From a bacterium (GTDB lineage Bacteria; Vulcanimicrobiota; Vulcanimicrobiia; Vulcanimicrobiales; SCRA01): a DNA stretch of 64,000 nt. Each line of letters opens with the position of its first letter. Position 1 is the first letter of the stretch. The notes below the pieces were generated by a model. That model ran no database searches. It was not told the origin of the DNA and saw only the letters and a program-made list of their open reading frames with translations. This document shows positions 1,616-51,733 of this stretch, piece after piece. The position numbers and the translations under genes were made by a program. The DNA lies in contig SCRI01000060.1 of NCBI GenBank assembly GCA_004298675.1, positions 1 through 64,000 on the forward strand, given 5' to 3'.

Positions 1616-4076
1616 GTGCGCCTCTGAAGGCTTTCGCCGGTTCGTGCCACAGCGTCGCGAGCGCCGCCACGGCCAGCCCCACGCCCCAGTCGCCCAGACG
1701 CAAGGGCTCGAACTGCACCGCCGCCGCCGCGAGCGGCACATACACTAGCACGATCAAGCTCGCGACGGCAGCCAGCACCACCACGATCAGCGTCACGTTG
1801 GTGCGCAGCGGCAGGCGCCAGAACGGTTGCTCCGGCGCGCGCTCGACGACCACCAGCAACACCTGCCCCAGCACCAGCGCGCAGAGCGCCTGCGCGCGCG
1901 CATGGTTGACCGGCACGCCCTGGCTCCACTGCCACAGGTATAGCGCCAGCACGCCCACTGCCAACGTCGTGCCCAAGGCGAGCGGACGGGCGAACTCGCC
2001 GCGGCGCAGGATACCCGCGCCTTCACGCCGCGGCGGCCGGCGCATCAAATCGGCGTCCGGCGGATCGGCCTCGAAGACCAGCGAGGAGGTGGGGTGGACG
2101 ATCAGCTCCAGCCACACCAGATGCACCGGCAGCAATAGCAGCGGCGCCCCCGCGATCGGCAGCACCAGCGCAGAGATCAGGAGCGGCACGTGAAAGGCCA
2201 GCAGATACGAGAAGGCGTGCTTGAGGTTGTCGAAGATGCGGCGCCCGTCACGCACGGCGCGCTCGATGGTCGTGAAATCGTCGTCGAGCAGCACCAAATC
2301 CGCCGCCTCGCGCGCCACCTCGGTACCACGCTGCCCCATGGCGATGCCGATGTCGGCTTCGCGCAGCGCCGGCGCGTCGTTGGTGCCGTCGCCCGTCATG
2401 GCAACGACCTCGCCGCGCGCCTGCAGCGCTTTGACGAGCCGGTACTTCTGCTCCGGGCGCGTGCGCGCGAAGACGCTCGCATGCGCTGCGAGATCGGCCA
2501 GCGCCGCGTCGTCGGCCGCGTCGATGCGCTCCCCGCTGGCCACGGCCCCCACGCCTTCGATGTCGAAACCTAGCGCCACGGCGATCGCCGCCGCCGTTTG
2601 CGGATGATCGCCGGTGAGCATGATCACCCGCACACCCGCGCGCCGGCACTCGTCCAGCGCTGCGCGCACACCTGGCCGGATGGGATCGCTGAACGCCAAC
2701 AACCCCACAAACTGCAGGGCGCGCTCGTCGGCGGCGCGATCGGTGCTGCGCGCAATGGAGCCTTGCGCTACGGCGATCACGCGCATGCGGCGGGCGGCGA
2801 AGCGGCGGTTGAGCTCCTCGACACGGGCGCGTTGCGCGGGCGGCGGTGCGGTGAGATCGAGGATACCCTCGACCGAGCCTTTGGCGTAGATGCGCGTCCC
2901 GGCGGCCTCCTCCCGCACGTAGCTGACGTACTTCGCGCGCGGATCGAAGGCATAACTGCGCAGTAACGGCGCGAACGCAAACGCACCGTCCGCCGCGCGT
3001 GCCGCGCGCTCGATCGCCTGCTCCAGCGGGTCGAAGGGCGTCTCCTCCGATGCTAGCAACGCCGCCCGGAGCACGCCACCTTGCGCCGGCTCGACCGCCG
3101 CGACGTCCAGGCGCCCTAGCGTCAACGTGCCGGTCTTGTCGGTACAGATGACGGTCGTGGCACCCAGCGTCTCGGCACTGGGCAACTTGCGGATCAGCGC
3201 CTCGTCGCGCGCCAGACGCCACGCCCCTAGCGCCAGATAGAGCGTGTACACCATGGGAAACTCTTCGGGGATGGCCGCCATCGCCAAGCTCACGCCCGCG
3301 ATGACCGCCGCAGGCCACGCCGTCCCGCGTAGCAGATCCACTGCCACCACCGCCACGCAACTGATCGCGGCGACGACCCCAAGCTGCGTCACGAAGCGGC
3401 GCACGGTGCGCTGCAGCGGCGTCGGCGGCGCCTCGATCGTGCTCAGCAGCGTGCCGATCGCGCCGTGGCGCGTGCGCGCGCCGGTGGCGGTGACGATCAT
3501 GGTTCCACGTCCGGAGCGCAACGTCGTCCCGGCCCAGAGCACCCGCTGCGCACCGTCTTCAACGGCATCCTTGGCAACCGGTTGGGACTCGCCGGTAAGC
3601 GTCGACTCGTCGAGCATCAGCTGCGAGCCGCGCAGCAGCAGACCATCGGCGGGGATGACGTCGCCCTCTTTGACGATCAATACGTCGTCGGGAACGATCT
3701 GCGTGGAGGAGAGCGTGACCTCGCGCCCGTCGCGTAGCGCGATCGCCGTGGGCGCGGTCAAACGTTTGAGCCGGTCGAGCGCGCGGTCGGCACGCCCCTC
3801 CAAGACGAGCGAGACGAGCACGATCGGGGCCAGCGCGAGGCCCGTGACCCAGGCGTCGAAGCGATCGCCGAGGATCAGATAGGTAGCGCTGGCAACCACC
3901 AGCAGCAGCGCCATCGGATCGCCCGCTGCCTTGAGCGCACGGCGCCAGGCAGGGGTGCGCCGTTGCGAGGGCAGCTCATTGGGGCCGTAGATCTCCAGAC
4001 GGCGCGCCGCCTCGGCCGATTCCAACCCGTCGAGCGCCTTCTCTTGACCGCTCGTGGCCGCCCCGGTCTCCACCAT
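1584..4076 (-). CDS. P-type cation-transporting ATPase (P2-like), 830 aa
   Basis: This is a membrane ATPase pumping a cation, of the general P2 (Ca2+-pump-like) plan. It shows an N-terminal cation-ATPase domain (ARRLEIYGPNELP), the actuator motif STLTGES, an M4 helix reading AAIPEEFP, the aspartyl-phosphate motif DKTGTLT, a KGSVEG nucleotide-binding motif, MLTGDHPQT and the hinge MTGDGTNDAP, followed by a C-terminal membrane bundle. No CPx motif is present, so it is not the copper ATPase CcoI that usually accompanies cbb3 oxidases. I chose ATG 4076 because the longer open frame to 4238 would run into the upstream gene. The substrate cannot be read from the sequence; Ca2+ is the usual default for this fold. 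It is the sixth gene counted from proC in a run of minus-strand genes and overlaps the next ATPase by 32 nt. Confidence 0.85.
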   Translation of the reverse strand: MVETGAATSGQEKALDGLESAEAARRLEIYGPNELPSQRRTPAWRRALKAAGDPMALLLVVASATYLILGDRFDAWVTGLALAPIVLVSLVLEGRADRALDRLKRLTAPTAIALRDGREVTLSSTQIVPDDVLIVKEGDVIPADGLLLRGSQLMLDESTLTGESQPVAKDAVEDGAQRVLWAGTTLRSGRGTMIVTATGARTRHGAIGTLLSTIEAPPTPLQRTVRRFVTQLGVVAAISCVAVVAVDLLRGTAWPAAVIAGVSLAMAAIPEEFPMVYTLYLALGAWRLARDEALIRKLPSAETLGATTVICTDKTGTLTLGRLDVAAVEPAQGGVLRAALLASEETPFDPLEQAIERAARAADGAFAFAPLLRSYAFDPRAKYVSYVREEAAGTRIYAKGSVEGILDLTAPPPAQRARVEELNRRFAARRMRVIAVAQGSIARSTDRAADERALQFVGLLAFSDPIRPGVRAALDECRRAGVRVIMLTGDHPQTAAAIAVALGFDIEGVGAVASGERIDAADDAALADLAAHASVFARTRPEQKYRLVKALQARGEVVAMTGDGTNDAPALREADIGIAMGQRGTEVAREAADLVLLDDDFTTIERAVRDGRRIFDNLKHAFSYLLAFHVPLLISALVLPIAGAPLLLLPVHLVWLELIVHPTSSLVFEADPPDADLMRRPPRREGAGILRRGEFARPLALGTTLAVGVLALYLWQWSQGVPVNHARAQALCALVLGQVLLVVVERAPEQPFWRLPLRTNVTLIVVVLAAVASLIVLVYVPLAAAAVQFEPLRLGDWGVGLAVAALATLWHEPAKAFRGARGAAAGTGAG

Positions 4077-4117
4077 GGCGACATGATGAGCGAGAACGGG
4101 GAAGTTCTTGCGAACCC

Positions 4118-4561
4118 CTAGCGCACGCTCGCCGAGTAGTAGGTCGGAGTCTTCGCGAACTCCGGCGGCACGTTCCACATCTCCGCCGCGTACCACGCGG
4201 CCCAGGCTCCGATGAAGACGCACATCACCCAGGTCCATACGGGGATCGGCGAGGGCGACTCCGCGCGGCGGGGCTCGAAGGGCTCCTCACCATGGAACGC
4301 GTTGAGACGCATCTCTACGGTGCCGTGAACCTTACTCCCAGCGCGTAGTCCGGAGACGGTGATACCCGGGCCGTTACGCACTTCGAAGGGAATGCGCCGG
4401 GCGCCGATACGTCCGGTAGCATCCGAAGCCTCGATACGCAGCGTGTGCTCGCCGTCGCTCAAGCGCGTCGTGTCCAGTGAGAAACTCGCCGGCGGCGTGT
4501 ACTCCGCCAGCGGTTGCGCCGCGCCGTCAAGGTAGACGCGGATGCGCGCGGCCTCCTCCAT
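4118..4561 (-). CDS. Ig-like-domain membrane protein of the cbb3 oxidase operon
   Basis: This 147-residue protein has an N-terminal beta-rich domain of about 100 residues that looks like a bacterial Ig/Big fold (pattern SLDTTRLSDGEHTLRIEA). A single transmembrane helix lies near residues 108-128 (VWTWVMCVFIGAWAAWYAA), followed by a short tail. I do not recognise a named family. It is not a FixH/CcoH, which has its helix at the N-terminus. Its ATG overlaps the stop of the 54-residue subunit gene by one base (TGATG), so it belongs to the oxidase operon. An assembly or structural role in the oxidase is inferred from position only. Confidence 0.65.
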   Translation of the reverse strand: MEEAARIRVYLDGAAQPLAEYTPPASFSLDTTRLSDGEHTLRIEASDATGRIGARRIPFEVRNGPGITVSGLRAGSKVHGTVEMRLNAFHGEEPFEPRRAESPSPIPVWTWVMCVFIGAWAAWYAAEMWNVPPEFAKTPTYYSASVR

Positions 4562-4725
4562 CAGCGATCCTCCTTTAGGACGCGGTACTTCGGATGATTG
4601 GGATCCGTCTCACCCGGCGCTACCAGCATACGCACGGCGGCCACGATCACCCAGAGCGTGATGGCGGCGCCGGCTAGCGCCACGAGCGCGTTACCCAGGG
4701 GCGGCCCGCTTAGCATGTGTTCCAC
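4561..4725 (-). CDS. 54-residue single-helix protein, CcoQ-like position
   Basis: This small gene was translated by hand from GTG 4725. The product starts VEHMLSGPPLGNAL, has one transmembrane helix (about residues 13-32, rich in Ala, Val and Ile) and ends in a charged tail DPNHPKYRVLKEDR. A GGAGGG ribosome site lies about 9 nt before the GTG, and the stop overlaps the next ATG as TGATG. Placement directly after the cytochrome c subunit and its size match the small CcoQ subunit of cbb3 oxidases. The sequence itself is too short to prove homology. Confidence 0.7.
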   Translation of the reverse strand: MEHMLSGPPLGNALVALAGAAITLWVIVAAVRMLVAPGETDPNHPKYRVLKEDR

Positions 4726-4728
4726 GGC

Positions 4729-5736
4729 CTACCGCCCTCCCTTGCGGACGCGCGCCACGTCGGCGGGGGTCACCGTCGGCGCGTGGTTTCCCCACGCCGT
4801 GCGCTCGTGATCGACGATCGCGGCGATCTGCTCGTCGCTGAGCTGGCTGGCAAAGGCCGGCATCTGGCCGCCGTAGGCCGTGCCGCCGATCGCCTTGCCG
4901 TGCAGGCCGTCGAGCACGACCTTCAGGTGTTCCGCTGGGTCGGAGGCCGTGACGACCGGATCGTTCACCAGCGGCGGAAACGCACCGGCCACACCGGTGC
5001 CCTGCGCGCCGTGACAGGCCGCGCAGTTCGCGGCGTAGAGATTCGGGCCCGTGGCGGCATAGTCGAAGCCCTTGGCGGCGCCCGCGGAAGCCGGTGCGGC
5101 GGCCTGACCTGCGGCCGGCTTAGCCGGCGCCATGGCCTGCTCGGCCTCCTGCGCCGCTTTCTGCATCTCCGGTGAGAGCGCCGGTTGCTTGAGCGAGAGC
5201 AGATAGGCTACCAGTGCCTTGGCGCGCGCCGTGGGCACCACGACGCCGCTCTTGGGGGCATACGCGGGCGGCAGCGCCACCGCGGTCTCGCCGGGCGGCG
5301 CGCTCGGCACGACCCGGAAGAGCCAACGATACGAGGGCATGATCGATGGCGGGACCACCGCGCGCGGATCGTAGAGGTGAATGTACTGCCAGACCTCGGC
5401 CGGTTGACGCACGCCAACGTTGCTGAGATCGGGGCCGGTACGCTCCGAGCCCAACAGCTCGGGGGTAGCGTAGGCGTAATCGCCGGCGGCCGATGGACGG
5501 CCGAAGACTTTGTCCATCGCGAGCGGACGCACTTGCTGGGTGTGGCAGTAGGAACAGCCCTCCGCCACGTAGACCGCGCGCCCCGCCTCCTGCTCCGGCG
5601 TCAGCGGCGTGACTCCCGGCCCAGGCGCGGTCTTGGAGAGCGCCATGCCCGGCAGCACGCCCATCAGGATCGCCAGCACGAGGTAGACGAGCCCCGCTCC
5701 GCCGGCGATGGCCACCAGGCGGCCGTCGCGGCTCAT
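4729..5736 (-). CDS. CcoO-CcoP fusion, dihaem cytochrome c subunit of cbb3 oxidase
   Basis: This subunit delivers electrons to the cbb3-type oxygen reductase. The 335-residue protein has an N-terminal membrane anchor (about residues 8-32), then a CcoO (FixO) domain with haem motif CSYCH and axial Met in PPSIMPSYRW. A Pro/Ala-rich linker (about 195-220) leads to a second class I cytochrome c domain with CAACH and an axial Met in GGQMPAF. In most bacteria CcoO (one haem) and CcoP (two haems) are separate. Here one polypeptide carries one haem of each type, so one CcoP haem is missing. The ATG overlaps the ccoN stop (TGATG). Confidence 0.9.
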   Translation of the reverse strand: MSRDGRLVAIAGGAGLVYLVLAILMGVLPGMALSKTAPGPGVTPLTPEQEAGRAVYVAEGCSYCHTQQVRPLAMDKVFGRPSAAGDYAYATPELLGSERTGPDLSNVGVRQPAEVWQYIHLYDPRAVVPPSIMPSYRWLFRVVPSAPPGETAVALPPAYAPKSGVVVPTARAKALVAYLLSLKQPALSPEMQKAAQEAEQAMAPAKPAAGQAAAPASAGAAKGFDYAATGPNLYAANCAACHGAQGTGVAGAFPPLVNDPVVTASDPAEHLKVVLDGLHGKAIGGTAYGGQMPAFASQLSDEQIAAIVDHERTAWGNHAPTVTPADVARVRKGGR

Positions 5737-9623: not shown

Positions 9624-10017
9624 CCTGCGCGAGAAAACTGCCGACGAGCGCCGGGGGTGGAGGCAGGCAGCCCTCTGGAGTCGGCTCCATATAGCCCACC
9701 CGGACGTCGTAGCGGCCCCCTGGGAGCAGCGGCGGCAGCACCGCCCCGCGGCGTTCCTCGCCGCCGTTGACGGCACGCAGCGAGCCCGGCGCCGGTGTCG
9801 CCCGTAGCGGCGCGCTGTGCCGGCGCAGCCCCGGGCCGCTCACGATCACGCGCAGGGGCGGCGTCAACAGCGGCACCGTCAGCGAGACCACGCTCTCACG
9901 AGGGTCGAAGCTGAGGCTTTGGGCGGCCACGGCCGGCAGCGGATCGCAACCGTCGCCGTGCTCGATCAGCGGCGCGGCGCCCATGCCCAAGGCCGCCGCC
10001 AACGCCATCGCAAACAT
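9610..10017 (-). CDS. hypothetical secreted protein
   Basis: I do not recognise this 135-residue protein. From ATG 10017 it begins with a hydrophobic stretch (MFAMALAAALGMGAAP) that could be a signal peptide. The rest is Pro-, Leu- and Arg-rich with beta-strand-like alternation (RVIVSGPGLRRH, RYDVRVGYME) and two Cys. The frame could start earlier, at 10164, but that would overlap the divergent LysE gene. Codon use matches neighbouring genes only moderately, so it may not be a true gene. Confidence 0.45.
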   Translation of the reverse strand: MFAMALAAALGMGAAPLIEHGDGCDPLPAVAAQSLSFDPRESVVSLTVPLLTPPLRVIVSGPGLRRHSAPLRATPAPGSLRAVNGGEERRGAVLPPLLPGGRYDVRVGYMEPTPEGCLPPPPALVGSFLAQVSGK

Positions 10018-10090
10018 GCCGCTCTGTTTCGGCACGCGCCTGCGCGGACCCGGGCGGGACGAGCGAGCCCGGCGCGCGAACCGCGGCGGG

Positions 10091-10720
10091 ATGCTCACGC
10101 TCGCCTCGCTCGCGCTCTTTCTCGCCGCCGCCGTGCCGCTGATCCTCGCGCCCGGACCCGACACGCTCTACGTGCTCTCGCGCGCCGTGGGCCAGGGGCG
10201 CCGCTACGGCGTGCTCTCCGCCTTGGGCGTCGGAACGGGACTGTGGGTTCACATCCTGGCGGCCACCGTCGGGCTCTCGGCGCTTCTGCGCGCTTCGGCG
10301 CTGGCGTTCGCCGCCGTGCGCTACGCCGGCGCGGCGTACTTGATCTATCTGGGCATCCGCACGCTGTGGTCGCACGGTCCATCCCTCGCGCGCGACCAGG
10401 GCACGGACGCGGCACCTGCGCGCATCTTCGCCCAGGCCGTCGTAACCAACGTGCTCAATCCGAAGGTGGCGCTCTTCTTCCTCGCGTTCATCCCGCAGTT
10501 CATCGATCCGGCACGCGGCTCCGTCGCATGGCAGATCCTCCAGTACGGCGCCATCTACGACGTGTTGGGCATTGCTTGGCTCACCGCGGTGGCCGCCGGC
10601 TCCGGAACGATCGGCGCGCTGCTGGCGCGCGACCGCCGTGCGCTGCGCGCGCAACGCTGGCTTACCGGCGGTATCATGCTGGCACTGGGTCTGCGCTTGG
10701 CGCTACCGGAGCAGCGCTAA
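10091..10720 (+). CDS. LysE/RhtB family exporter
   Basis: This is a predicted inner-membrane amino acid or metabolite exporter. The 209-residue length and six hydrophobic segments fit the family. The N-terminal motif PGPDTLYVLSRAVGQGRRYG is the LysE signature, and NVLNPKVALFF is the second conserved motif. ATG 10091 was chosen because the family starts just before the first helix; the upstream frame is not hydrophobic. The substrate cannot be assigned. It is divergent from the small secreted protein and convergent with the HtrA-like protease, 9 nt away. Confidence 0.85.
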   Translation: MLTLASLALFLAAAVPLILAPGPDTLYVLSRAVGQGRRYGVLSALGVGTGLWVHILAATVGLSALLRASALAFAAVRYAGAAYLIYLGIRTLWSHGPSLARDQGTDAAPARIFAQAVVTNVLNPKVALFFLAFIPQFIDPARGSVAWQILQYGAIYDVLGIAWLTAVAAGSGTIGALLARDRRALRAQRWLTGGIMLALGLRLALPEQR

Positions 10721-10729
10721 GCGGCGCCG

Positions 10730-11677
10730 CTACTCCGGCAGCTCGGCGGGGACGATCGTCATCTTCACGAGACTCCCGGCGCGCAACAGCTGCATCTCCA
10801 TGCCGGCATCGGGCACGTAGACACCGAGCGCGCGCTGCAGATCGTCGGGGGTGCGGATACGACGGCCGCCGAGGCCGACGATGACATCGCCTGCGCGCAG
10901 TCCCGCGCGCTGCGCGGGGGTGCCGGCATGGACCTCGGTGACCTGTGCGCCGCGCGCATCCTCCAACCCATATCGCGAGACGAAGATGGGCGCGATGCCA
11001 ATGCTCTGCGCCGAGATCCCGAGGTAGGCGCGCCGGACGCGCCCCTCGCGCATGAGCAGGCCGGCCACCCAGCTCACCGTGTTGATGGGAATCGCGAAGC
11101 AGATGCCCTGTGAGCCCGCGATGATCGCCGTGTTGAGGCCCACCACCTGACCGCGCCCGTTCAGCAGCGGTCCGCCGGAGTTGCCGGGGTTGAGCGCGGC
11201 GTCGGTCTGGATGACGTTCTCGATGAGCCGGCCCGTCTGCGCGCGCAGCGAGCGCCCCAGCGCACTGACCACGCCCGCCGTCACCGACGCTTGGAAGCCG
11301 AGCGGATTCCCGATCGCGATTACCAGCTCCCCGACGCGCAACTCCGACGAGTCGCCTAACACCGCCGCGGCCAGCGCACCGGACGCGACGCGGATGATCG
11401 CGGTGTCGCTATGAGGATCCTCACCGATGCGTTGCGCGGGCAGCTCGCGGCCGTCGTGCAGCACGACGTTCACCTCGCCGCCGTGGTGCACGACGTGGCT
11501 GTTCGTCAACACGTAGCCATCGGGCGCGAAGACCACACCGCTGCCGGCACCGGCGTGCTTGACGTGCACGCCGACCACCGCCGGTGCGGCCGTCTCGACG
11601 ACGCCGACGACCGTTTGCGAATACGCGTCCAGGAGGTCAGGAGCGCGTTGCGCGGGAGAGATCGTAGGAGTATCCAT
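10730..11677 (-). CDS. HtrA/DegP-like S1C serine protease with PDZ domain
   Basis: This is a protein-quality-control protease of the HtrA family. The trypsin-like domain shows the catalytic triad in order: His in TNSHVV, Asp in HSDTAI, Ser in NPGNSGGPL. One C-terminal PDZ domain covers about residues 215-310 (GLRAGDVIVGLGG). It has 315 residues from ATG 11677, shorter than DegP, which has two PDZ domains. Unusually there is no signal peptide or membrane anchor at the N-terminus, even if an upstream start at 11728 is used. The protein may therefore be cytoplasmic, or the start may be further upstream at a rare codon. Confidence 0.88.
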   Translation of the reverse strand: MDTPTISPAQRAPDLLDAYSQTVVGVVETAAPAVVGVHVKHAGAGSGVVFAPDGYVLTNSHVVHHGGEVNVVLHDGRELPAQRIGEDPHSDTAIIRVASGALAAAVLGDSSELRVGELVIAIGNPLGFQASVTAGVVSALGRSLRAQTGRLIENVIQTDAALNPGNSGGPLLNGRGQVVGLNTAIIAGSQGICFAIPINTVSWVAGLLMREGRVRRAYLGISAQSIGIAPIFVSRYGLEDARGAQVTEVHAGTPAQRAGLRAGDVIVGLGGRRIRTPDDLQRALGVYVPDAGMEMQLLRAGSLVKMTIVPAELPE

Positions 11678-11787
11678 GGGTGTGCCATGAAACCCGTCGA
11701 TTGCGCCGCCGGTTCCGCCCGTGTCCACCCGGGTACCATACAGGCACGGGCCGGCTTGGCTCGCTTTGCGGAGAGAGGAGTTGATAG

Positions 11788-13011
11788 ATGGAGCACGTGG
11801 CCGTGACGGGCATGGGGATCGTCGCCCCTATCGGTCACGACGTCGAAACGTTCTGGCAGGGGCTGATCGAAGGCAGCTGCGCCGTGGCACCCATTCCAGG
11901 GGGCGACGGGCTCCCGGGGAACCGGCTCTGGGCCGCCGTGCCGGACACGTTTCTCGAGCGCGCGCCGCTGCCGGCCGAGGCACTGCGCAACACCGATCGC
12001 TTCACCCGCTTCGCGCTCGTCGCCGCAGATCAAGCCGTCAGGCAGGCCGCGGCCGAGCCGCTCGACACGCTGCGCACCGCCGTCGTCATCGGCAACACGA
12101 TGGGCGGCTTTCCCTTCGTCACGGCGGCGCAGCAGGAGTACCTCACGCAAGGCTCCCGCAGCGTTCCCCCCAAGCTCATGGCGTTGGTGATTCCCAACAT
12201 GCCGGCCGCCCGCGTCGCGCTGCATTATCGACTCCACGGTCCGCAGCTCGCACTCAGTACGGCCTGCGCCTCCTCACTCGATGCCGTTGGGCTGGCCGCG
12301 CGCATGATCGAGCGCGGAGAAGTCGATCTCGCGCTCGCCGGCGGAACTGAGGATCTCCTGGCCCATCTCGTCTACGAGAGCCTGATGCGCGCCGGAGCGC
12401 TCTCACGCAATCCCGATCCCGCGACCGCCTCACGGCCGTTCGACGCCGCACGCGACGGCTTCGTCATGGGCAACGGCGCCGCATTGCTGCTGCTGGAGCG
12501 CGCGGAGCACGCAGCCGCGCGTGGCGCGCGCGTCCTCGCGCACATCCGCGGCTATGGCCAGGTCGCCGATGCGTACCACATTACCTCGCCCGAGCCTAGT
12601 GGCGAGTGGGAATTATTGGCGATGCGCCATGCGCTCGACGACGCCGCGCTCGACACGCGCCGGACGCCGCCCGTGATCTTCGCGCACGGTACGGCCACGG
12701 TCGTCGGTGACGCCGCCGAGATCGCCGCGATCAACCGCCTGTGCGCGGCGTCCGCGCGTGTTCCCAGCGTGACCTCGCTCAAGGGCCACCTGGGGCACAG
12801 CATGGCCGCCTCCGGCGTCATGTCGCTGATCGCCGGCATCCTCGGTCTGGAACGCGGACTCGTAGTCCAGACGCTAGGCACGCACCGTGTCGATGCAGCG
12901 GCGCACTTCGACGTGGTGGCGGAACGTGCGCGGCCGCTCTCCTTCGATTCGTTTCACGTCAATGCGTTCGGCTTCGGCGGACAGAACTCGTCGCTCGTCG
13001 TAAGCCGCTAG
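11788..13011 (+). CDS. beta-ketoacyl-ACP synthase II-like (FabF family)
   Basis: This condensing enzyme elongates acyl chains on ACP. It has 407 residues. The catalytic Cys is in STACASS (about residue 160), the two active-site His are in FAHGTATVVGD and GHLGHSMAASG, and the Lys is in SLKGH. GAGAGGAG precedes the ATG. It is the first gene of the operon ending at 20088, with 44 nt to the EPSP-synthase-like fusion gene. In that setting it may extend, or be selective for, cyclohexanecarboxyl-primed chains, but this is inference. A general FabF role is the alternative. Confidence 0.88.
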   Translation: MEHVAVTGMGIVAPIGHDVETFWQGLIEGSCAVAPIPGGDGLPGNRLWAAVPDTFLERAPLPAEALRNTDRFTRFALVAADQAVRQAAAEPLDTLRTAVVIGNTMGGFPFVTAAQQEYLTQGSRSVPPKLMALVIPNMPAARVALHYRLHGPQLALSTACASSLDAVGLAARMIERGEVDLALAGGTEDLLAHLVYESLMRAGALSRNPDPATASRPFDAARDGFVMGNGAALLLLERAEHAAARGARVLAHIRGYGQVADAYHITSPEPSGEWELLAMRHALDDAALDTRRTPPVIFAHGTATVVGDAAEIAAINRLCAASARVPSVTSLKGHLGHSMAASGVMSLIAGILGLERGLVVQTLGTHRVDAAAHFDVVAERARPLSFDSFHVNAFGFGGQNSSLVVSR

Positions 13012-13041
13012 GTGCTTGCTCGCCAGATTCCTGGGTACAAG

Positions 13042-13080
13042 TATGAAGTCACGGGGTGTATATGTCCATGCGACTTCATA
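13042..13080 (+). promoter_or_regulatory. inverted repeat enclosing the start region of the fusion gene
   Basis: A perfect 9-bp inverted repeat (TATGAAGTC at 13042-13050, GACTTCATA at 13072-13080) flanks a 21-nt loop that contains all three candidate starts (GTG 13056, ATG 13062, ATG 13068) and the only purine-rich ribosome-site candidate (ACGGGG). In RNA it could present or hide the start. Chance occurrence is not excluded. Confidence 0.4.
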
Positions 13081-16058
13081 TCCAGGGGCCCACTCTTCCC
13101 CTGCGCGGCGAGTTGCTCGTGCCCAACTCCAAGTATCACGCACACCGCGCACTGATCCTCGCCTCGCTCGCACCAGGCACGAGCACGATTCACGGACTCT
13201 CCGATGCGCGCCACGTCCAGTACACCGTCGACGTGCTGCGCGCGCTGGGCACGCGCATCGACATCGAGCACGAGACGTTCGTGGTGCGCGGCGGCGCCTA
13301 TCACCCCTCGCGGCACACGATCTCGGTGGGCAGCTCGGGCACCACGCTCTACTTCATGACCGGCTTGGCGGCGCTGGCGGACGCCCCGCTCACGCTCACC
13401 GCGCAGAAGTACTTCCGCCGCCGCCCCGTCTTGCCGCTGCTGGAGGCACTGCGGCAGCTGGGCCTGCGCATCGACGCGGCAGCGGGCGGCTGTCCGCCCT
13501 TCGCGATCGAGCCGCGGCGCCCGCGCGGCGGGAACGTCCGCGTGGCGGGAACACTCTCGCAGTGGATCTCGGGGTTGCTGCTCGCGGCACCGTTTGCCAC
13601 CTCGCGCACCGTCATCGACGTGGACGGTCCGCTCAACGAGCGGCCGTACATCGACCTCACGCTGACGATGATGGAGCGCTTCGGCCTACGGGTAGAGGCC
13701 TCACCGGATCGGCTGCACTACGAGATCGAGCCCGGTCAGGAGGCGCGCCCGGCCACCGTCTCGCTGCCACCCGACGTGGGCTCCGCCGCGTTCGGTCTGG
13801 CGGCGGCCGCGCTCCATCCATCCGACGTGCTCTTGCGCGGCTTCGGCGACGCCGGCGACCATCCGGAGGCGCGCTTCTTAGACGTCTTGCGCGAGATGGG
13901 TGTCCCGCTGGAGCGCATGGAGGATGAGCGCACGCTGCGCGTGCGTCACGACGGCCCGGCATTGCACGGCGTGCGCGTGGATTGTCGCGAGCTGCCGGAC
14001 ATGCTGCCGATCCTCTGCACGCTCGGCAGCCTCGCGCACGGTGAGACTATTCTCGAGAATGTCGCCCACGTACGGCTCAAGGAGTCGGACCGCGTGGCGG
14101 CGATGCTGCAACTCAACCGTATGGGCGCCGACCTGCGCGTGGAGGGAGAGCGCGTACGCATCCACGGCGTACGCCAGCTGCGCAGCGCCTCGCTTTCGTC
14201 GTACAACGATCATCGCGTGCTGATGTCGCTCGCGATCGCCGCCACGCGCGCCACGGGTGAGAGTACGCTCACCTATCCTAACGCGTACCGCATCTCCTAT
14301 CCGATGTTCCTGGATTCGATGCGCTCGATCGGCCTCTCGATGTCGGTCGGCGCGCTTCCGGGCGAGGCCTTGGCGCACCGCACGGCGGCCGCGCGGCACG
14401 CTACCTCACCCACGCGCGCGGCGGCGCTAGTCATGCCAGATCTCGTGCGGCGCTGGTGCCGGGAGCGGCCAGGCGAGACCGCCGTCATCGACGTGCGCGA
14501 GGAACTGACGACCGCGTGGACCTGGCGGGAGCTGGGGGAGCACGTCGACCGCACGGCCACGCTGCTGCTGCGGTTAGGCGTGCGCCAGGGTGAGGCCGTG
14601 GCCTACCAGCTTCCCAACTGGAGCGAGTTCGTCGTCATCTCCTTGGCGGCGTTACGCATCGGCGCGACCTGCTGTCCACTGATGCCGATCCTGCGCGAGC
14701 GCGAGATGGCATTCATCCTGCAGCGCGCCAAGGCGCGCGTCGCGTTCGTCCCAGCTACGTTCCGCGGACGCAGCTACACTGAATCGATGGCGCAGGTCGC
14801 GCCGTCCGTGGCGACGCTCGAGCACGTCGTCGTGGTCGCGGCGGGGCGCGCGGCCAATCTCCCGGAGACACCGGGCGGACGCGTGCGGTGGCAGCGCTAC
14901 CACGACGCGCTGCGCGCCACGCCCATCGACCAGCGCGCCTTGGAGACGCGCCGTCCGCGTGCCGCTGCCATGGCACAGCTCCTCTTCACTTCAGGAACGT
15001 CGGGCGAACCCAAAGGCGTGCTCCATCGCAACGACGTGCTGATGCGCGCGGCGGCGATGCAGGCGGCGCATTTCGCGCTGAACTCCGCCGACCGCATCTT
15101 CATCCCGTCACCGCTCGCCCATCAAACCGGCTTCCTCTACGGCATGTGGCTGGCGTTGCTGCTGGGGGTACCGCAGATTCTGCAAGACGTCTGGAGGCCT
15201 GGCAACGCGCTCGCGGCGCTGCGTACGTGGGGCGGCACGTTCGTGCAGGCGGCCACGCCCTTCCTAGCCGATCTCGTGAAGGCCGTCGACGCCGGCAGCG
15301 CACCCCCGGCGGTCCTGCGCATCTTCGTCGCCACCGGTGCGGCCGTTCCACGCGTGCTGGCGCAGCACGCCACGAGCGCGCTGGGGACTACCGTCTGCGG
15401 TGCCTGGGGCACCACGGAGTCGTGCTTGGGCACGGCCGCCGCCCCCGGCGATCCGCCGGAAAAGGTCTGGGGCACCGACGGCCGAGCGCTGAACGGCGTG
15501 CGCATCCGCGTGACCGGCGCCGGCGGCACCACCCTGCCCTACGGCAGCGAAGGCAACTTCGAGATCGACAACCCCTGCATGTTCGCCGGGTATCTCGATC
15601 ATCCGGAGTGGACGGCGGCGGCCTACACGCAGGATGGCTGGTTCCGCACGGGCGATCTCGCCGTGATCGACGAGAGCGGCTACATTCGCATCACCGGGCG
15701 CGTCAAGGACGTCATCAATCGCGGCGGCGAGAAGATCCCGGTTGCCGAGATCGAGCAACTCCTCTACGGACATCCGGCCGTGGCGGAGGCGGCCATCGTC
15801 GCCATGCCCGACGAGCGCCTGGGTGAGCGCGCCTGCGCCTTCGTCGTCACCCGGACCAGCGCCGTCTTCAACTTCCGCGGTATGCAGCGCTATCTCGACG
15901 AGCTGCGCGTGGCCAAGCAGTTTTGGCCGGAGCGTCTGGAGCTCGTGCCCGAGCTTCCCAAGACCGCCTCCGGCAAGATCCAGAAGTACATCCTGCGCGA
16001 GCGCGCGCAACATCTTTCACCGCAGAGCGCGGAGGAGCACGTGCGTGGGCGTCGTTGA
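13056..16058 (+). CDS. EPSP-synthase-like / acyl-CoA ligase fusion (AnsJ-AnsK, PlmJK type)
   Basis: This 1000-residue protein joins two enzymes. Residues 1 to about 430 are an EPSP synthase fold (KYHAHR near 26-31, SQ 168-169, Tyr198, Asp315, KESDR 342-346, YNDHR 383-387). Residues about 455-1000 are an adenylate-forming CoA ligase (LLFTSGTSGEPKG 642-654, WGTTES 784-789, FRTGD 863-867, catalytic Lys974 in SGKIQK). The EPSP half keeps shikimate-contact residues but lacks the Lys that binds PEP in E. coli (K411 aligns with Ile413), and Asn94 is replaced by Ser93. In Streptomyces ansatrienin and phoslactomycin clusters an EPSP-synthase homologue and a CoA ligase start the route from shikimate to cyclohexanecarboxyl-CoA. 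I infer the same job: elimination of water from shikimate, then CoA activation. Confidence 0.88.
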   Translation: MYMSMRLHIQGPTLPLRGELLVPNSKYHAHRALILASLAPGTSTIHGLSDARHVQYTVDVLRALGTRIDIEHETFVVRGGAYHPSRHTISVGSSGTTLYFMTGLAALADAPLTLTAQKYFRRRPVLPLLEALRQLGLRIDAAAGGCPPFAIEPRRPRGGNVRVAGTLSQWISGLLLAAPFATSRTVIDVDGPLNERPYIDLTLTMMERFGLRVEASPDRLHYEIEPGQEARPATVSLPPDVGSAAFGLAAAALHPSDVLLRGFGDAGDHPEARFLDVLREMGVPLERMEDERTLRVRHDGPALHGVRVDCRELPDMLPILCTLGSLAHGETILENVAHVRLKESDRVAAMLQLNRMGADLRVEGERVRIHGVRQLRSASLSSYNDHRVLMSLAIAATRATGESTLTYPNAYRISYPMFLDSMRSIGLSMSVGALPGEALAHRTAAARHATSPTRAAALVMPDLVRRWCRERPGETAVIDVREELTTAWTWRELGEHVDRTATLLLRLGVRQGEAVAYQLPNWSEFVVISLAALRIGATCCPLMPILREREMAFILQRAKARVAFVPATFRGRSYTESMAQVAPSVATLEHVVVVAAGRAANLPETPGGRVRWQRYHDALRATPIDQRALETRRPRAAAMAQLLFTSGTSGEPKGVLHRNDVLMRAAAMQAAHFALNSADRIFIPSPLAHQTGFLYGMWLALLLGVPQILQDVWRPGNALAALRTWGGTFVQAATPFLADLVKAVDAGSAPPAVLRIFVATGAAVPRVLAQHATSALGTTVCGAWGTTESCLGTAAAPGDPPEKVWGTDGRALNGVRIRVTGAGGTTLPYGSEGNFEIDNPCMFAGYLDHPEWTAAAYTQDGWFRTGDLAVIDESGYIRITGRVKDVINRGGEKIPVAEIEQLLYGHPAVAEAAIVAMPDERLGERACAFVVTRTSAVFNFRGMQRYLDELRVAKQFWPERLELVPELPKTASGKIQKYILRERAQHLSPQSAEEHVRGRR

Positions 16059-17217
16059 GGATGCGCCGGCGTTCGACGAGCAGCGGTTCGCCGAACTCAA
16101 GGGCGAGGTTGCGGCATGGGTTGAGGGCGCGGGGGAGGAGTACGCGCGGCTCATCGAGCGCGAACACCACGTCCCCCAGGCGCTCTGGGAGGAGTTGCGC
16201 GCGCGCGGTTACCTGGCGCTCGCGGCACCGCGCGCCTATGGCGGCGCCGGACTTCCGTTCAGCCGCTACATGGAGTTGATGGAGCTCTTCGCCATGTCGC
16301 ATGCCTCACTGCGCATGATCGTGCACGTCGTCAACGGGGTCTGGCGCGCCTTGGATCGCTTGGCCGACGCGGAGCAGCGCCGGCGCTTCGTGCTGCCCTC
16401 CATCGCGGGCGAGATCGTCGTCGCCTTCACGCTCACCGAACCCACGGCCGGCAGCGGCGCGGATCTGCACTGCACGCTCGAGCGCGACGGCGACGCCTAT
16501 CTGCTCAGCGGCGAGAAGCACCTCATCACGTTCGGCACCATCTGTGACTACTGGCTGCTCTTCGCGCGCCTGGCTGGAACTTCGGGAGCGCAGGGCGTGA
16601 CGGCGCTGATGGTCGACCGCCGCACAGCGGGCGTGCGGGTGGAGGCGATGCCGGAGACGATGGGCGTGCGCGGCACCGATCACGCGCACCTGGTCTTCGA
16701 ACGCGCGCGCGTGCCGCTGGCCAACCGCCTGGGCGCCGAGGGCCGCGGCCTGGAGGTGGCATTCGATGGCTTTCTCACCCCCAGCCGTATCTCGGTGGCC
16801 ATGAGCTGCGTCGGACTAGCGCGCCGCGCGCACGAGCTGGCCGTCGCCCACGCCGCCCGGCGCATGACGTTCGGCAAGTATCTCGCACAACGGCAGGCCA
16901 TCGCCTTCATGATCGCCGAGAACGCCACCGACGTCGAAGCCGCACGCCAACTCGTGCTGCACGCGGCGCGCGCCTGGGAACGCGGCGCCGCCGACGCGGG
17001 TGCGCTCTCGTCGATGTCGAAGCTGCAAGCCGTCGACATGCTGGGGCGCGTCACCGACAAGGCGCTGCAGATCCACGGCGGCCTCGGCTACTGGCAGCCG
17101 CAGCCCATCGAGCGGGTCTATCGGGACGCGCGCGCCCAGCGCTTCGAAGAGGGTACCAATGAGATTCAGAAGGCGGTCATCGCGCGCGAGATCCTGCGGG
17201 GGCGGGTAGGCGCATGA
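16045..17217 (+). CDS. acyl-CoA dehydrogenase (AnsL-like context)
   Basis: This FAD flavoprotein introduces or isomerises a double bond next to a CoA thioester. The 390-residue protein shows [10 protein letters not shown] in the FAD/substrate region, and the C-terminal catalytic Glu in the family position within [13 protein letters not shown] 16045 follows GGAGGAG by about 8 nt and overlaps the fusion gene by 14 nt, which argues for translational coupling. In cyclohexanecarboxyl-CoA pathways an acyl-CoA dehydrogenase homologue sits in the same place among the genes. Its exact step here is inferred; an ordinary fatty acyl-CoA dehydrogenase would be the alternative reading. Confidence 0.88.
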
Positions 17218-18047
17218 AGTTCGCAGGCAAGATTGCGCTGATCACCGGATCGTCCCGTGGCATCGGCAAGGCGCTGGCGCTGACGTTGGCCGCGCAAGGA
17301 GCGACGCTCGCCGTCAACTACAAGAAGAACGAGGCGGCGGCACACGCTACCGTCGCGGCGATCGAGCGCCTGGGCGCGCGCGCCCTTGCCATCCGCGCCG
17401 ACATGGAGGACCCCGCCGAGATCGAGCGGCTCTTTGCCGAGACGGCAGCCGCCTACGGGCGGCTCGATCTCTTCGTCTCCAACGCCGCGGCCAGTTCGTT
17501 CAAGAGCATCCTCGATCTCAAACCTCACCATCTCGATCGCTCCTTCGATCTCAACGTGCGCGCGTTCGTCCTAGCCGCGCAGCGGGCCGTGCCGCTGATG
17601 AAGGACGGCGGGCGCATCGTGGCGCTCTCGAGTTACGGCAGCATCCGCGCCTACCCCACGTACGCCAATCTCGGCTCTGCCAAGGCCGCCATCGAAGCTT
17701 GGGTGCGCTACATGGCGGTCGAGTTCGCACCCTACGGCATCAACGTCAACGCCGTCAACGGCGGCATCATCGACACGGAGTCGGCGGCCTTCTTCTACAA
17801 CGTGCCTGGCATGGCGCCGCTCTCGAAGGTCCTGCCGAAGATTCCGCAGGGGCGTATGGGAACCGCGCAGGAGGTTGCCGACGCCGTCGCCTTCCTGCTG
17901 GGTCCGGAGTCGACGTACATCACCGGGCAGACGCTCGTCGTCGACGGCGGGCTCACCGTCGTGGCGCCGCCGTTCTTCGACGACGCTACCCCACCGCTCA
18001 CGCTGCCGGAACGCACCAACGCGAAGGCCACCGCTTCACGTGCTTGA
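17214..18047 (+). CDS. SDR enoyl reductase, FabL/ChcA-like
   Basis: This short-chain dehydrogenase/reductase has 277 residues, a TGSSRGIG cofactor motif (11-18) and an active site spaced Tyr150-x6-Lys157, not the usual Tyr-x3-Lys. That spacing is typical of enoyl reductases (FabI, FabL). The block [19 protein letters not shown] closely resembles Bacillus FabL. ChcA, the 1-cyclohexenylcarbonyl-CoA reductase of cyclohexanecarboxyl-CoA synthesis, is a reductase of the same superfamily. Its ATG overlaps the dehydrogenase stop (ATGA). I infer reduction of ring double bonds conjugated to the CoA ester; a FabL role in fatty acid synthesis cannot be excluded. Confidence 0.88.
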
Positions 18048-20088
18048 CGCCGCCCTGCGCGCCGGCCGCATCGGCACGCTCGCTCTTCCCAACCGCATCG
18101 TCATGGGCGCGATGCACCTGGGCTTCGAGTCGCGCGACGACGGCGGCGAGACGCTAGCAGCCTTCTACGCCGAGCGCGCTCGCGGCGGCGCGGGCTTGAT
18201 CGTCACCGGCGGCTGGGCCGTCAACCGCGCCGCTGCCGCCGGGCGCAGCTACGGCCTCGTCAACGAGGACGACGCCGCGCCGCGCCTGCGCCGCGTGGCA
18301 GACGCCGTGCACGCCGCCGGCGGACGCATCGCCTTGCAACTCTTCCACGCCGGCCGCTACGCGCCGCGTGCGTCCTTCGACATTCAGGCCGTAGCGCCGT
18401 CGCCGCTGGCCAGCACGTTGACGCGCGAGGAGCCGCGCGCGATGACGGAGGAGGACATCTGGGAGACCATCGCGCTCTACGCGCGCGGTGCCTTCCGGGC
18501 GCTGCAATTCGGCTTTGACGGCGTCGAGATCATGGCGTCCGAAGGCTACCTGGTCGACCAGTTCCTCTCGCCGCTGACCAATCGGCGCGACGACGACTGG
18601 GGCGGAGACGCCGCGCGGCGGCGGCGCTTCGGCATGGAGATACTGCGCGCCATCCGCAGGATGCTCGGCCCGGACATCCCCGTGATCTTCCGCATCTCCG
18701 GCGTCGACCTCATGCCGGGCGGCACGCCGCAGGACGACGTGCTGGACTTCGCGCGCGCGCTCGCGCACGAGGGCGTCGACGCGATCAACGTGGGCGTGGG
18801 CTGGCACGAGTCCCGCGTGCCCACCGTGCAGTCGCTGGTGCCCGCAGGCGTCTGGATCCGTTACGCCGCGGCGATCAAAGAGGTGGTGGGCGGCGTTCCG
18901 GTGATCGGCGGCAACCGCATCAATACGCTGACGCTGGCGGACGAGATCCTCGCGCGGGGCAGCGTCGACTTCATCTCGATGGCGCGCCCGTTCCTTGCGG
19001 ACCCTGCGCTCGTGTCCAAGGCCGCCGGCGGCCAAGCGCAACTGATCGATACCTGCATCGCGTGTAACCAGGCCTGCATCGATCGCTCGCTGAGCGATGG
19101 CGCCGTCTCTTGCATGGTCAATCCCCGCGCTGGGCGCGAGTTGGAGCTGCGTGAGGATCGCCCGGCCGGCAAGGCGCTGCACGTCGCCGTGATCGGCGGG
19201 GGCCCCGCGGGCATGGAGGCGGCACGCGCGCTCGCTGCGCTGGGCCACCGCGTCGAGCTCTTCGAAGCGCAGGTGCAACTCGGGGGCCAGCTCCGTCTGG
19301 CCGCGCGCGTCCCCGGCAAGGGCGACTACGGCGAAACGATCCGCTATTTCACGCACGAGTTGGCACGCTTGGGCGTCCGGGTCCGGCTGAGCGAGTGCTT
19401 CGGCGCCGCCGACGTCGAGCGCTTGCGCGCGTACGACGCCACCATCGTTGCGACCGGGGTGCGCCCGCGCGCGATCGACCTTCCCGGCGCCGATCTTCCG
19501 CACGTCCGCACCTACGCGCAGGCGCTGCTGGGCGAGCAAGAGATCGGACGGCGCGTTGCCATCGTCGGTGCCGGCGGTATCGCCGTCGACGTCGCGCATC
19601 TGCTCGCCTATGGCGACGCGGAACTCGACTCCGCAACGCGCTTTCTGTGGGAGCAGGGGCTTTGGAACGGCGGCGTGGACGGAGCACTGGTGATCGACCG
19701 CCGCCGCGTTGCCATGCTGCGCCGGGGCACGCGCGTGGGCGAGCACATCGGCAAATCGACGCGCTGGGCGATCCTGCAGGAGCTCCGCAGGCAAGGCGTG
19801 GAGACGCTCACCGGCGTGAGCTACGAGCGCATCGTGCCGGAGGGGCTCTGGATTCGCGACGAGCGCGGAGAGCGCCGGCTGATCGAAGCCGACAACGTCG
19901 TGATTGCAGCCGGCCAAGTGCCGGAGAACGCGCTCGCCGCGGCGCTGGCGCGCGCCTCGATCCGCCATCGCGTCATCGGCGGCGCACGCGAGGCCAAGGA
20001 GCTCGACGCCGTGCGCGCCTTCGACGAAGGCGCACGCGCCGCCCACGAACTGGGAGAGCGGCCGGTGGCCGCTCTCCCGCAGCCTTAG
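18040..20088 (+). CDS. FadH-like 2,4-dienoyl-CoA reductase / 2-enoate reductase (AnsM-like context)
   Basis: This 682-residue multi-cofactor flavoenzyme has an N-terminal old-yellow-enzyme TIM barrel with FMN (1 to about 335), then four Cys for a 4Fe-4S cluster (C339, C342, C346, C358; CIACNQAC). An FAD/NAD(P) domain follows ([15 protein letters not shown] at about 384-398). The dienoyl reductase residues are kept: Tyr in SEGY (about 170) and His in GVGWHESR (about 256). GTG 18040 overlaps the SDR stop by 8 nt. In this operon it is expected to remove ring double bonds from a cyclohexadienyl-carbonyl-CoA. The next gene, aconitase, converges on it. Confidence 0.9.
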
Positions 20089-20092
20089 ACCC

Positions 20093-22825
<2,733 letters not shown>

Positions 22826-51627: not shown

Positions 51628-51733
51628 GAACTCCTCTACGCGCCGCGACGGACGCTCCACTACGGAAAAAAATGCTAGCGCCGTGGCTTCATCATCGAGG
51701 GCGGCACACCCTTGGTCGCGATGTCAAATGACG

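What the first reader, a model, noticed from the sequence alone, without database searches (positions are those of the whole stretch)
11788..20088. Complete candidate cyclohexanecarboxyl-CoA (omega-cyclohexyl lipid) operon outside Streptomyces
Seen: five plus-strand genes, four of them overlapping, encode a ketoacyl synthase, an EPSP-synthase-like/CoA-ligase fusion, an acyl-CoA dehydrogenase, a Tyr-x6-Lys enoyl reductase and a FadH-like dienoyl-CoA reductase. Known (from memory): the ansatrienin (ansJ, ansK, ansL, ansM, chcA) and phoslactomycin clusters use the same enzyme classes to convert shikimate to cyclohexanecarboxyl-CoA, the starter for cyclohexyl polyketides; Alicyclobacillus makes omega-cyclohexyl fatty acids. 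Inference: this organism makes cyclohexanecarboxyl-CoA and, given the linked ketoacyl synthase and the absence of polyketide genes, uses it as a fatty-acid primer for membrane lipids.
Basis: partly seen in the sequence, partly recalled or inferred. Interest (0 to 1): 0.87.

Follow-up and report, generated by a model that had tools for sequence, protein, structure and literature searches.

The report
Cyclohexane-ring primer operon with dedicated synthase
A soil bacterium of the little-cultured phylum Eremiobacterota carries the complete gene set that Streptomyces uses to turn shikimate into a cyclohexane-ring building block, here travelling with its own chain-building enzyme and no antibiotic genes, which suggests that it makes ring-tipped fatty acids.

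Summary
Five plus-strand genes at 11788-20088 encode a FabF-type ketoacyl synthase (KS), a fused EPSP-synthase-like/CoA-ligase (JK), an acyl-CoA dehydrogenase (L), a Tyr-x6-Lys reductase (ChcA) and a FadH-like reductase (M). JK-L-chcA-M has the same order as plmJK-plmL-chcA-plmM of the phoslactomycin cluster. JK is about 57-58% identical, over its full length, to the copies in ansatrienin-like and phoslactomycin-like clusters. Four residue changes separate its EPSPS-like half from the AroA of the same genomes. Cyclohexanecarboxyl-CoA synthesis is therefore very likely. The cassette is not confined to antibiotic makers: it occurs across Actinomycetota, in some Bacillota MAGs and in 3 of 70 Eremiobacterota genera. 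New here is the KS. Related FabF paralogues, distinct from housekeeping FabF, sit beside JK in many actinobacteria. In Micrococcaceae the KS lies elsewhere in the genome, yet co-occurs with JK (10 of 11; p = 6e-12). Operon and actinobacterial KS share a Phe-to-Leu change at the acyl pocket. The genome has no modular PKS, so omega-cyclohexyl fatty acids are the likeliest product, but no lipid data exist. Caveat: two sister species lost JK-L-chcA yet keep the KS under purifying selection.

The parts
11788..13011 (+). FabF-type 3-ketoacyl synthase (KS), 407 aa, Cys-His-His with Lys intact, belongs to a KS lineage that travels with JK; acyl-pocket Phe replaced by Leu199
   Evidence: (360 bits to TIGR03150, below its 494 cut-off)
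13068..16058 (+). JK: AnsJ-like EPSP-synthase-fold domain (about residues 1-425) fused to an AnsK-like acyl-CoA ligase (about 450-985)
   Evidence: (TIGR03208 cyclohexanecarboxylate-CoA ligase is the best ligase model, 477 bits, below cut-off)
16045..17217 (+). L: acyl-CoA dehydrogenase family (PlmL/AnsL-like), GTG start, catalytic Glu369
17214..18047 (+). ChcA-like short-chain enoyl-CoA reductase (cyclohexenylcarbonyl-CoA reductase), Tyr150-x6-Lys157, FabL-like
18040..20088 (+). M: FadH-like 2,4-dienoyl-CoA reductase (OYE domain, [4Fe-4S] cysteines, FAD/NAD domain), GTG start; PlmM/AnsM-like
   Evidence: 514 bits to 2,4-dienoyl-CoA reductase 1ps9

Best explanation
The operon makes cyclohexanecarboxyl-CoA from shikimate and feeds it to a dedicated FabF-type ketoacyl synthase, so that the normal fatty-acid machinery builds acyl chains tipped with a cyclohexane ring. 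Proposed steps, inferred from homology and established knowledge of the ansatrienin/phoslactomycin pathway: the J domain removes the first ring hydroxyl of shikimate; the K domain forms the CoA thioester; L, M and ChcA then dehydrogenate, reduce and isomerise ring double bonds until the ring is saturated. ChcA makes the final 1-cyclohexenylcarbonyl-CoA to cyclohexanecarboxyl-CoA reduction. Shown by sequence: gene set, order, orthology, intact catalytic residues, absence of a modular PKS. Inferred: enzyme activities, their order, and the destination of the product. My estimates: 0.88 that the operon makes cyclohexanecarboxyl-CoA or a close cyclohexenyl relative; 0.6 that the destination is an omega-cyclohexyl fatty acid.
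For: Gene order JK-L-chcA-M equals plmJK-plmL-chcA-plmM in phoslactomycin/lactomycin clusters (PMC5852498 table). JK is about 57-60% identical over full length to Streptomyces copies, including loci beside an AHBA synthase (631 bits to 1b9i) and a class II DAHP synthase, i.e. ansatrienin-like, and one beside a modular PKS. All 52 J domains share Y23, S89, L163 and Y/Q95 at EPSPS positions S23, N94, S169 and R100; 12 housekeeping AroAs of carriers keep S23, R100 and S/T169, and J forms its own clade. A separate AroA is present in all 12 carriers tested. The only other full-length KSs of the 98.5%-complete genome are the housekeeping FabF and one further KS, so there is no modular PKS; a FabH-FabD-FabG-ACP cluster is present. 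KS is in the operon in every Eremiobacterota carrier whose contig reaches it. A KS of a non-housekeeping clade is adjacent to JK in Streptomyces, Acidothermus, Microbacterium and Solirubrobacterales. In 121 Micrococcaceae genomes JK (11) and this KS (12) share 10 carriers although unlinked, Fisher p = 5.6e-12, and in three of those loci the KS lies beside chcA. FabH sits beside M in a Bacillota carrier; FabH pairs plus ACP sit beside JK in Lentzea, Kitasatospora and Streptomyces.
Against: No fatty-acid profile exists for any Eremiobacterota carrier. The cultured relative Vulcanimicrobium alpinum has iso-C14:0 types (PMC9758169); no V. alpinum record appeared among the hits, so it is uninformative. 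Two sister species lost JK, L and chcA but keep the KS under purifying selection, and two Micrococcaceae have the KS without JK, so the KS can serve something else. The KS is FabF-type, not the FabH type normally used to prime from acyl-CoA. I found no report of omega-cyclohexyl lipids in Arthrobacter carriers.
Confidence: 0.65

Rival explanations
1. The operon makes cyclohexanecarboxyl-CoA, but for a small specialised metabolite (one or a few KS-catalysed condensations), not for bulk membrane lipids.
For: The pathway is best known from antibiotics. Carriage is patchy (3 of 70 Eremiobacterota genera; 11 of 121 Micrococcaceae), as for secondary metabolism. A dedicated KS with an extra acyl-CoA/ACP ligase occurs in Micrococcaceae. 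KS is retained after loss of the pathway in sister species.
Against: No ACP, tailoring, transport, resistance or release genes are linked in the window or in the Eremiobacterota neighbourhoods examined. No modular PKS elsewhere in the genome. Antibiotic-linked JKs are nested inside stand-alone ones, so antibiotic use looks derived.
Confidence: 0.2
2. The enzymes run in the degradative direction: CoA activation and dehydrogenation of cyclohexanecarboxylate or hydroaromatic acids for catabolism, with the EPSPS-like domain a relic or shikimate-scavenging enzyme.
For: The best model for the ligase half is the degradative cyclohexanecarboxylate-CoA ligase AliA (TIGR03208, 477 bits, below its 792 cut-off) and plasmid AliA hits are about 40% identical. 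In some Arthrobacter the cassette lies near fadAB-like genes.
Against: The EPSPS-like domain is fused and conserved in every locus and has no role in cyclohexanecarboxylate degradation. Gene order equals the biosynthetic phoslactomycin cluster. No ring-cleavage genes are linked. The KS partner is a condensing enzyme.
Confidence: 0.08
3. The cassette stops at, or diverts to, an unsaturated ring product (e.g. cyclohexenylcarbonyl-CoA), giving cyclohexenyl-tipped acyl chains.
For: Sequence cannot distinguish how far ChcA reduces; in several Arthrobacter chcA is absent from the JK-L-M operon.
Against: In the window chcA is intact and in the operon; in two of the Arthrobacter-type genomes with JK a chcA is found beside the KS elsewhere (L204, L205).
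Confidence: 0.07

Closest known systems
Phoslactomycin / lactomycin cyclohexanecarboxyl-CoA gene set (plmJK, plmL, chcA, plmM)
   Same: Same four enzymes, same order, same EPSPS-ligase fusion (PMC5852498; nearest locus here L112)
   Different: Window has no modular PKS; a FabF-type KS precedes JK; phylum Vulcanimicrobiota; JK branches outside Actinomycetota
Ansatrienin-type ansJ/K/L/M + chcA (represented by loci L083, L086, L092, L102, L108 beside AHBA synthase and, in four of them, DAHP synthase genes)
   Same: Orthologous JK (57%), L (63-65%), ChcA (65-67%), M (52-53%) in the same order
   Different: Those are ansamycin clusters; the window is a stand-alone operon between htrA and aconitase
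Omega-cyclohexyl fatty acid producers (Alicyclobacillus, Sulfobacillus, Curtobacterium pusillum, Propionibacterium cyclohexanicum, Herbiconiux)
   Same: Shikimate-derived cyclohexyl primer is the presumed common chemistry (PMC3035248, PMC4378227, PMC5023266, PMC10011130)
   Different: Lipids measured there, not here; their operons could not be fetched by name for comparison. A JK cassette was found in Bacillota MAGs L117-L120; no KS of the special lineage was found in the three Bacillota genomes searched
FabF (KAS II)
   Same: Fold, Cys-His-His with Lys, 264 bits to B. subtilis FabF
   Different: Outside the housekeeping FabF clade; F to L199, S to A393, H to Q399

Membership tests
Cyclohexanecarboxyl-CoA biosynthetic cassette (AnsJKLM/ChcA, PlmJKLM/ChcA) | All enzyme classes present and orthologous: EPSPS-like, CoA ligase, ACAD, ChcA-type SDR, FadH-type reductase | tested here: met
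Cyclohexanecarboxyl-CoA biosynthetic cassette (AnsJKLM/ChcA, PlmJKLM/ChcA) | Gene order JK-L-chcA-M | tested here: met
Cyclohexanecarboxyl-CoA biosynthetic cassette (AnsJKLM/ChcA, PlmJKLM/ChcA) | EPSPS-like protein distinct from, and additional to, housekeeping AroA | tested here: met
   diagnostic Y23/S89/L163/Y95; separate AroA at G000:C74
Cyclohexanecarboxyl-CoA biosynthetic cassette (AnsJKLM/ChcA, PlmJKLM/ChcA) | Catalytic residues intact in ChcA, ACAD and FadH-like enzymes | tested here: met
Cyclohexanecarboxyl-CoA biosynthetic cassette (AnsJKLM/ChcA, PlmJKLM/ChcA) | Produces cyclohexanecarboxyl-CoA | not testable with these tools
   needs enzyme assay or heterologous expression
Omega-cyclohexyl fatty acid biosynthesis | Omega-cyclohexyl C17/C19 acyl chains in lipids | not testable with these tools
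   no lipid data for any Eremiobacterota carrier; related cultured V. alpinum has iso-C14 acids
Omega-cyclohexyl fatty acid biosynthesis | No polyketide synthase to receive the primer | tested here: met
   besides the operon KS only housekeeping FabF (597 bits) and one other stand-alone KS (402 bits, function unknown); no modular PKS
Housekeeping FabF (TIGR03150 equivalog) | Score above curated cut-off 493.75 and placement with FabF | tested here: not met
   360 bits; outside the FabF clade with support 99/98
Cyclohexanecarboxylate degradation (AliA-type ligase, TIGR03208) | Score above curated cut-off 792 | tested here: not met
   477 bits
Cyclohexyl polyketide cluster | Linked modular PKS | tested here: not met

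The most novel reading that the evidence does not exclude
A previously undescribed FabF-like ketoacyl-synthase lineage, marked by a Phe-to-Leu change in the acyl pocket and a NAFGFGGQN loop, is the dedicated condensing enzyme for ring-tipped acyl chains, and evolved with the cyclohexanecarboxyl-CoA cassette across two phyla. Eremiobacterota thereby make omega-cyclohexyl lipids, and the antibiotic use of the pathway is a late offshoot.
Probability: 0.45. Interest if true: 0.72.

Novelty: new variant of a known kind. Interest (0 to 1): 0.58.

Why it matters
Omega-cyclohexyl fatty acids have been known since the 1970s from acid-loving Bacillota and a few actinobacteria, but which enzyme builds chains on so bulky a primer is, to my knowledge, not settled. 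The association between the cassette and a distinct ketoacyl-synthase lineage names a candidate that can be tested by heterologous expression. It also gives gene markers for predicting ring-tipped lipids in uncultured soil bacteria, and suggests that a well-known antibiotic starter pathway was borrowed from an older stand-alone (probably lipid) pathway.

Tried and rejected
(1) Ordinary shikimate/beta-oxidation genes: rejected, since J is outside AroA with diagnostic residues. (2) Hidden modular polyketide cluster: rejected, no further PKS-like KS domains in the genome. (3) Degradative AliA system: considered; models score below cut-off and the EPSPS domain has no role there. (4) A strict claim that KS is obligate to the pathway: weakened by sister species G002/G003 and two Micrococcaceae. 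(5) A claim that operon KS and actinobacterial KS are each other's sisters: a tree without the other KSs joined them at 96%, but in the careful tree they and three other KSs (two probably type II PKS) lie together outside FabF with the order among them unresolved; shared residues remain, so common descent or convergence is open. (6) Looking for Alicyclobacillus-like carriers through the phylum of a Bacillota MAG: 1 of 399 genomes, only itself; named Alicyclobacillus genomes could not be fetched. (7) Plasmid search for a complete JK: none above 80% coverage. (8) Literature on fatty acids of carriers: only Herbiconiux (cyclohexyl-C17:0 'may be present') near a carrier family; nothing on Eremiobacterota. 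(9) Promoter/terminator scan gave nothing on the operon strand.
Full report
WHAT IS THERE. Five plus-strand genes occupy 11788-20088 between a divergent htrA-like gene (10730-11728, -) and a convergent aconitase gene (20093-22825, -) (aconitase named from its sequence). They are KS (11788-13011), JK (13068-16058; ORF from 13056), L (16045-17217), chcA (17214-18047) and M (18040-20088). The last four overlap by 14, 4 and 8 nt. Pfam and NCBIfam give FabF-type ketoacyl synthase, EPSP synthase plus AMP-binding ligase in one ORF, acyl-CoA dehydrogenase, FabL-like SDR and FadH-like reductase.

WHO CARRIES IT. The window lies in a 3.03-Mb genome, 98.5% complete. Relatives of JK from the same genus and order are titled Candidatus Eremiobacterota (NCBI: Vulcanimicrobiota) in public records. 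Within that phylum 20 of 149 genomes in 3 of 70 genera carry JK; in one genus (g4) almost every genome does. Wherever the contig is long enough the five genes are together, KS first; in one genus (L041/L059) KS stands last. Outside the phylum the JK fusion was found in Streptomyces, Kitasatospora, Lentzea, Micromonospora, Actinocatenispora, Nakamurella, Microlunatus, Acidothermus, Arthrobacter, Sinomonas, Cellulomonas, Microbacteriaceae, Solirubrobacterales and four Bacillota MAGs, nearly always as JK-L-chcA-M or with one gene displaced. Inverted (divergent) arrangements occur in Bacillota.

MEMBERSHIP. In phoslactomycin-class clusters the published order is plmJK, plmL, chcA, plmM (PMC5852498), the same as here. 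Five Streptomyces loci place the cassette near an AHBA synthase (L102: 631 bits to PDB 1b9i), four of them also near a class II DAHP synthase, as expected of ansatrienin-type ansamycin clusters. Locus L112 places it directly after a modular PKS. The window's JK is 57-58% identical to these over its full length. In a tree of 52 JK proteins Vulcanimicrobiota, Actinomycetota and Bacillota separate, and the antibiotic-linked copies (L083, L086, L092, L102, L108, L112) lie inside a group of stand-alone Streptomyces copies. So the antibiotic use looks derived; the root is by midpoint only.

THE EPSPS-LIKE DOMAIN. Aligned to E. coli AroA, all 52 J domains keep K22, R27, G96, R124, Q171, D313, E341, R344, H385 and R386, but replace S23 by Tyr, N94 by Ser, S169 by Leu and R100 by Tyr or Gln. 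The 12 housekeeping AroAs of carrier genomes keep S23, R100 and S/T169. A 13th hit first taken for AroA (L156, Lentzea) proved to be an unfused J paralogue. From established EPSPS structures (my knowledge), S23 and S169 bind shikimate-3-phosphate, so the J domain probably handles a different, perhaps unphosphorylated, shikimate substrate while keeping the PEP/phosphate side; this is inference. Every carrier tested has a separate AroA.

THE KETOACYL SYNTHASE. The operon KS scores 360 bits to the FabF model (cut-off 494); the genome's true FabF is elsewhere (597 bits), and the only other full-length KS is one at C49 (402 bits), so there is no modular PKS. A FabH (406 bits) and a FabD-FabG-ACP-like cluster are present (the last three named from sequence). 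FabF-type KSs stand next to JK in 11 Streptomyces loci, Acidothermus, Microbacterium STN6 and three Solirubrobacterales-type loci. These form one clade (100/99), separate from the housekeeping FabFs of the same genomes; the Eremiobacterota operon KSs form another (100/100) on the same side of the tree (99/98), together with three other KSs, two of them probably type II PKS. The two cassette-associated clades uniquely share Leu199 (Phe in every other KS compared) and Ala393, and almost uniquely Gln399. Leu199 aligns with a Phe of B. subtilis FabF that corresponds, by my reckoning, to E. coli Phe202 of the acyl pocket. A wider pocket for a ring-tipped chain is a natural, untested reading.

CO-OCCURRENCE. 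In 121 Micrococcaceae genomes JK occurs in 11 and this KS in 12, with 10 shared, although the two are not linked (Fisher p = 5.6e-12). Relatedness of the genomes is not corrected for, so the p-value is optimistic; the patchiness of both genes still makes the association striking. In the Micrococcaceae KS loci read, the KS sits next to an acyl-CoA-ligase-like gene, and in three of them (L204, L205, L208) next to a chcA as well, which explains the chcA missing from some JK-L-M operons.

A NATURAL DELETION. In two sister species of the window's genus (G002, G003) the same slot between htrA and aconitase holds an intact KS (77-78% identical) followed by a truncated M (residues 1-314 only; G002 also keeps a scrap of residues 506-540). 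JK, L and chcA are gone from the slot, and no full-length JK was found elsewhere in those genomes. Between G002 and G003 the KS is under strong purifying selection (dN 0.049, dS 0.467) whereas the M remnant drifts (dN 0.179, dS 0.435). So the full operon is probably ancestral to the genus and was lost once, and the KS has a use that survives loss of the primer pathway. This is the main evidence against reading KS as devoted only to cyclohexyl chains.

DESTINATION OF THE PRODUCT. There is no modular PKS, no linked ACP or tailoring gene, a FAS II set, and a recurrent condensing enzyme: KS in Eremiobacterota and Actinomycetota, FabH beside M in one Bacillota MAG, FabH pairs plus an ACP-like gene in Lentzea/Kitasatospora/Streptomyces. 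Together these make fatty-acid chains the most economical destination. Omega-cyclohexyl fatty acids are established in Alicyclobacillus (PMC3035248), Sulfobacillus (PMC4378227), Curtobacterium pusillum and Propionibacterium cyclohexanicum (PMC5023266) and noted in Herbiconiux (PMC10011130). The cultured member of the phylum makes iso-branched acids (PMC9758169), so alpha-branched primers are used in this phylum; it did not appear among the carriers. No lipid measurement exists for any carrier Eremiobacterota, so this step remains inference.

VERDICT. A real, complete, conserved cyclohexanecarboxyl-CoA operon in Eremiobacterota: a new variant (with its own KS, without PKS) of a known pathway. 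The most interesting new point is the KS lineage that travels with the cassette.

Noticed in passing
window 47350-51660 (-): A single 1436-aa ORF fuses two lipoyl domains, an E3-binding domain and an E2 acyltransferase domain to a complete 2-oxoglutarate dehydrogenase E1, resembling but longer than the actinobacterial Kgd/OdhA fusion.
   Followed up: partly
L198 (G002) 9946-12227; L199 (G003) 3312-5557: Shared deletion scar: KS kept, JK-L-chcA lost, M truncated at residue 314 in both sister species.
   Followed up: yes
L204, L205, L208 (Micrococcaceae): Second operon chcA - acyl-CoA-ligase-like - KS, unlinked to JK-L-M; the role of the extra ligase (28-30% to the K domain) is unknown.
   Followed up: partly
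L156 (Lentzea, G109:C2:473763-474977): Unfused J-type EPSPS paralogue besides the JK fusion in the same genome.
   Followed up: no
L062, L070, L072 (Streptomyces, Lentzea, Kitasatospora): Two FabH-like synthases and an ACP-like gene directly upstream of JK, with a DAHP synthase nearby in L070: possibly an undescribed cyclohexyl natural-product cluster.
   Followed up: partly
G000:C49:16092-17297 (L127/L201): A third, very divergent KS in the window's genome (402 bits to FabF, long branch), beside membrane-protein genes; function unknown.
   Followed up: no
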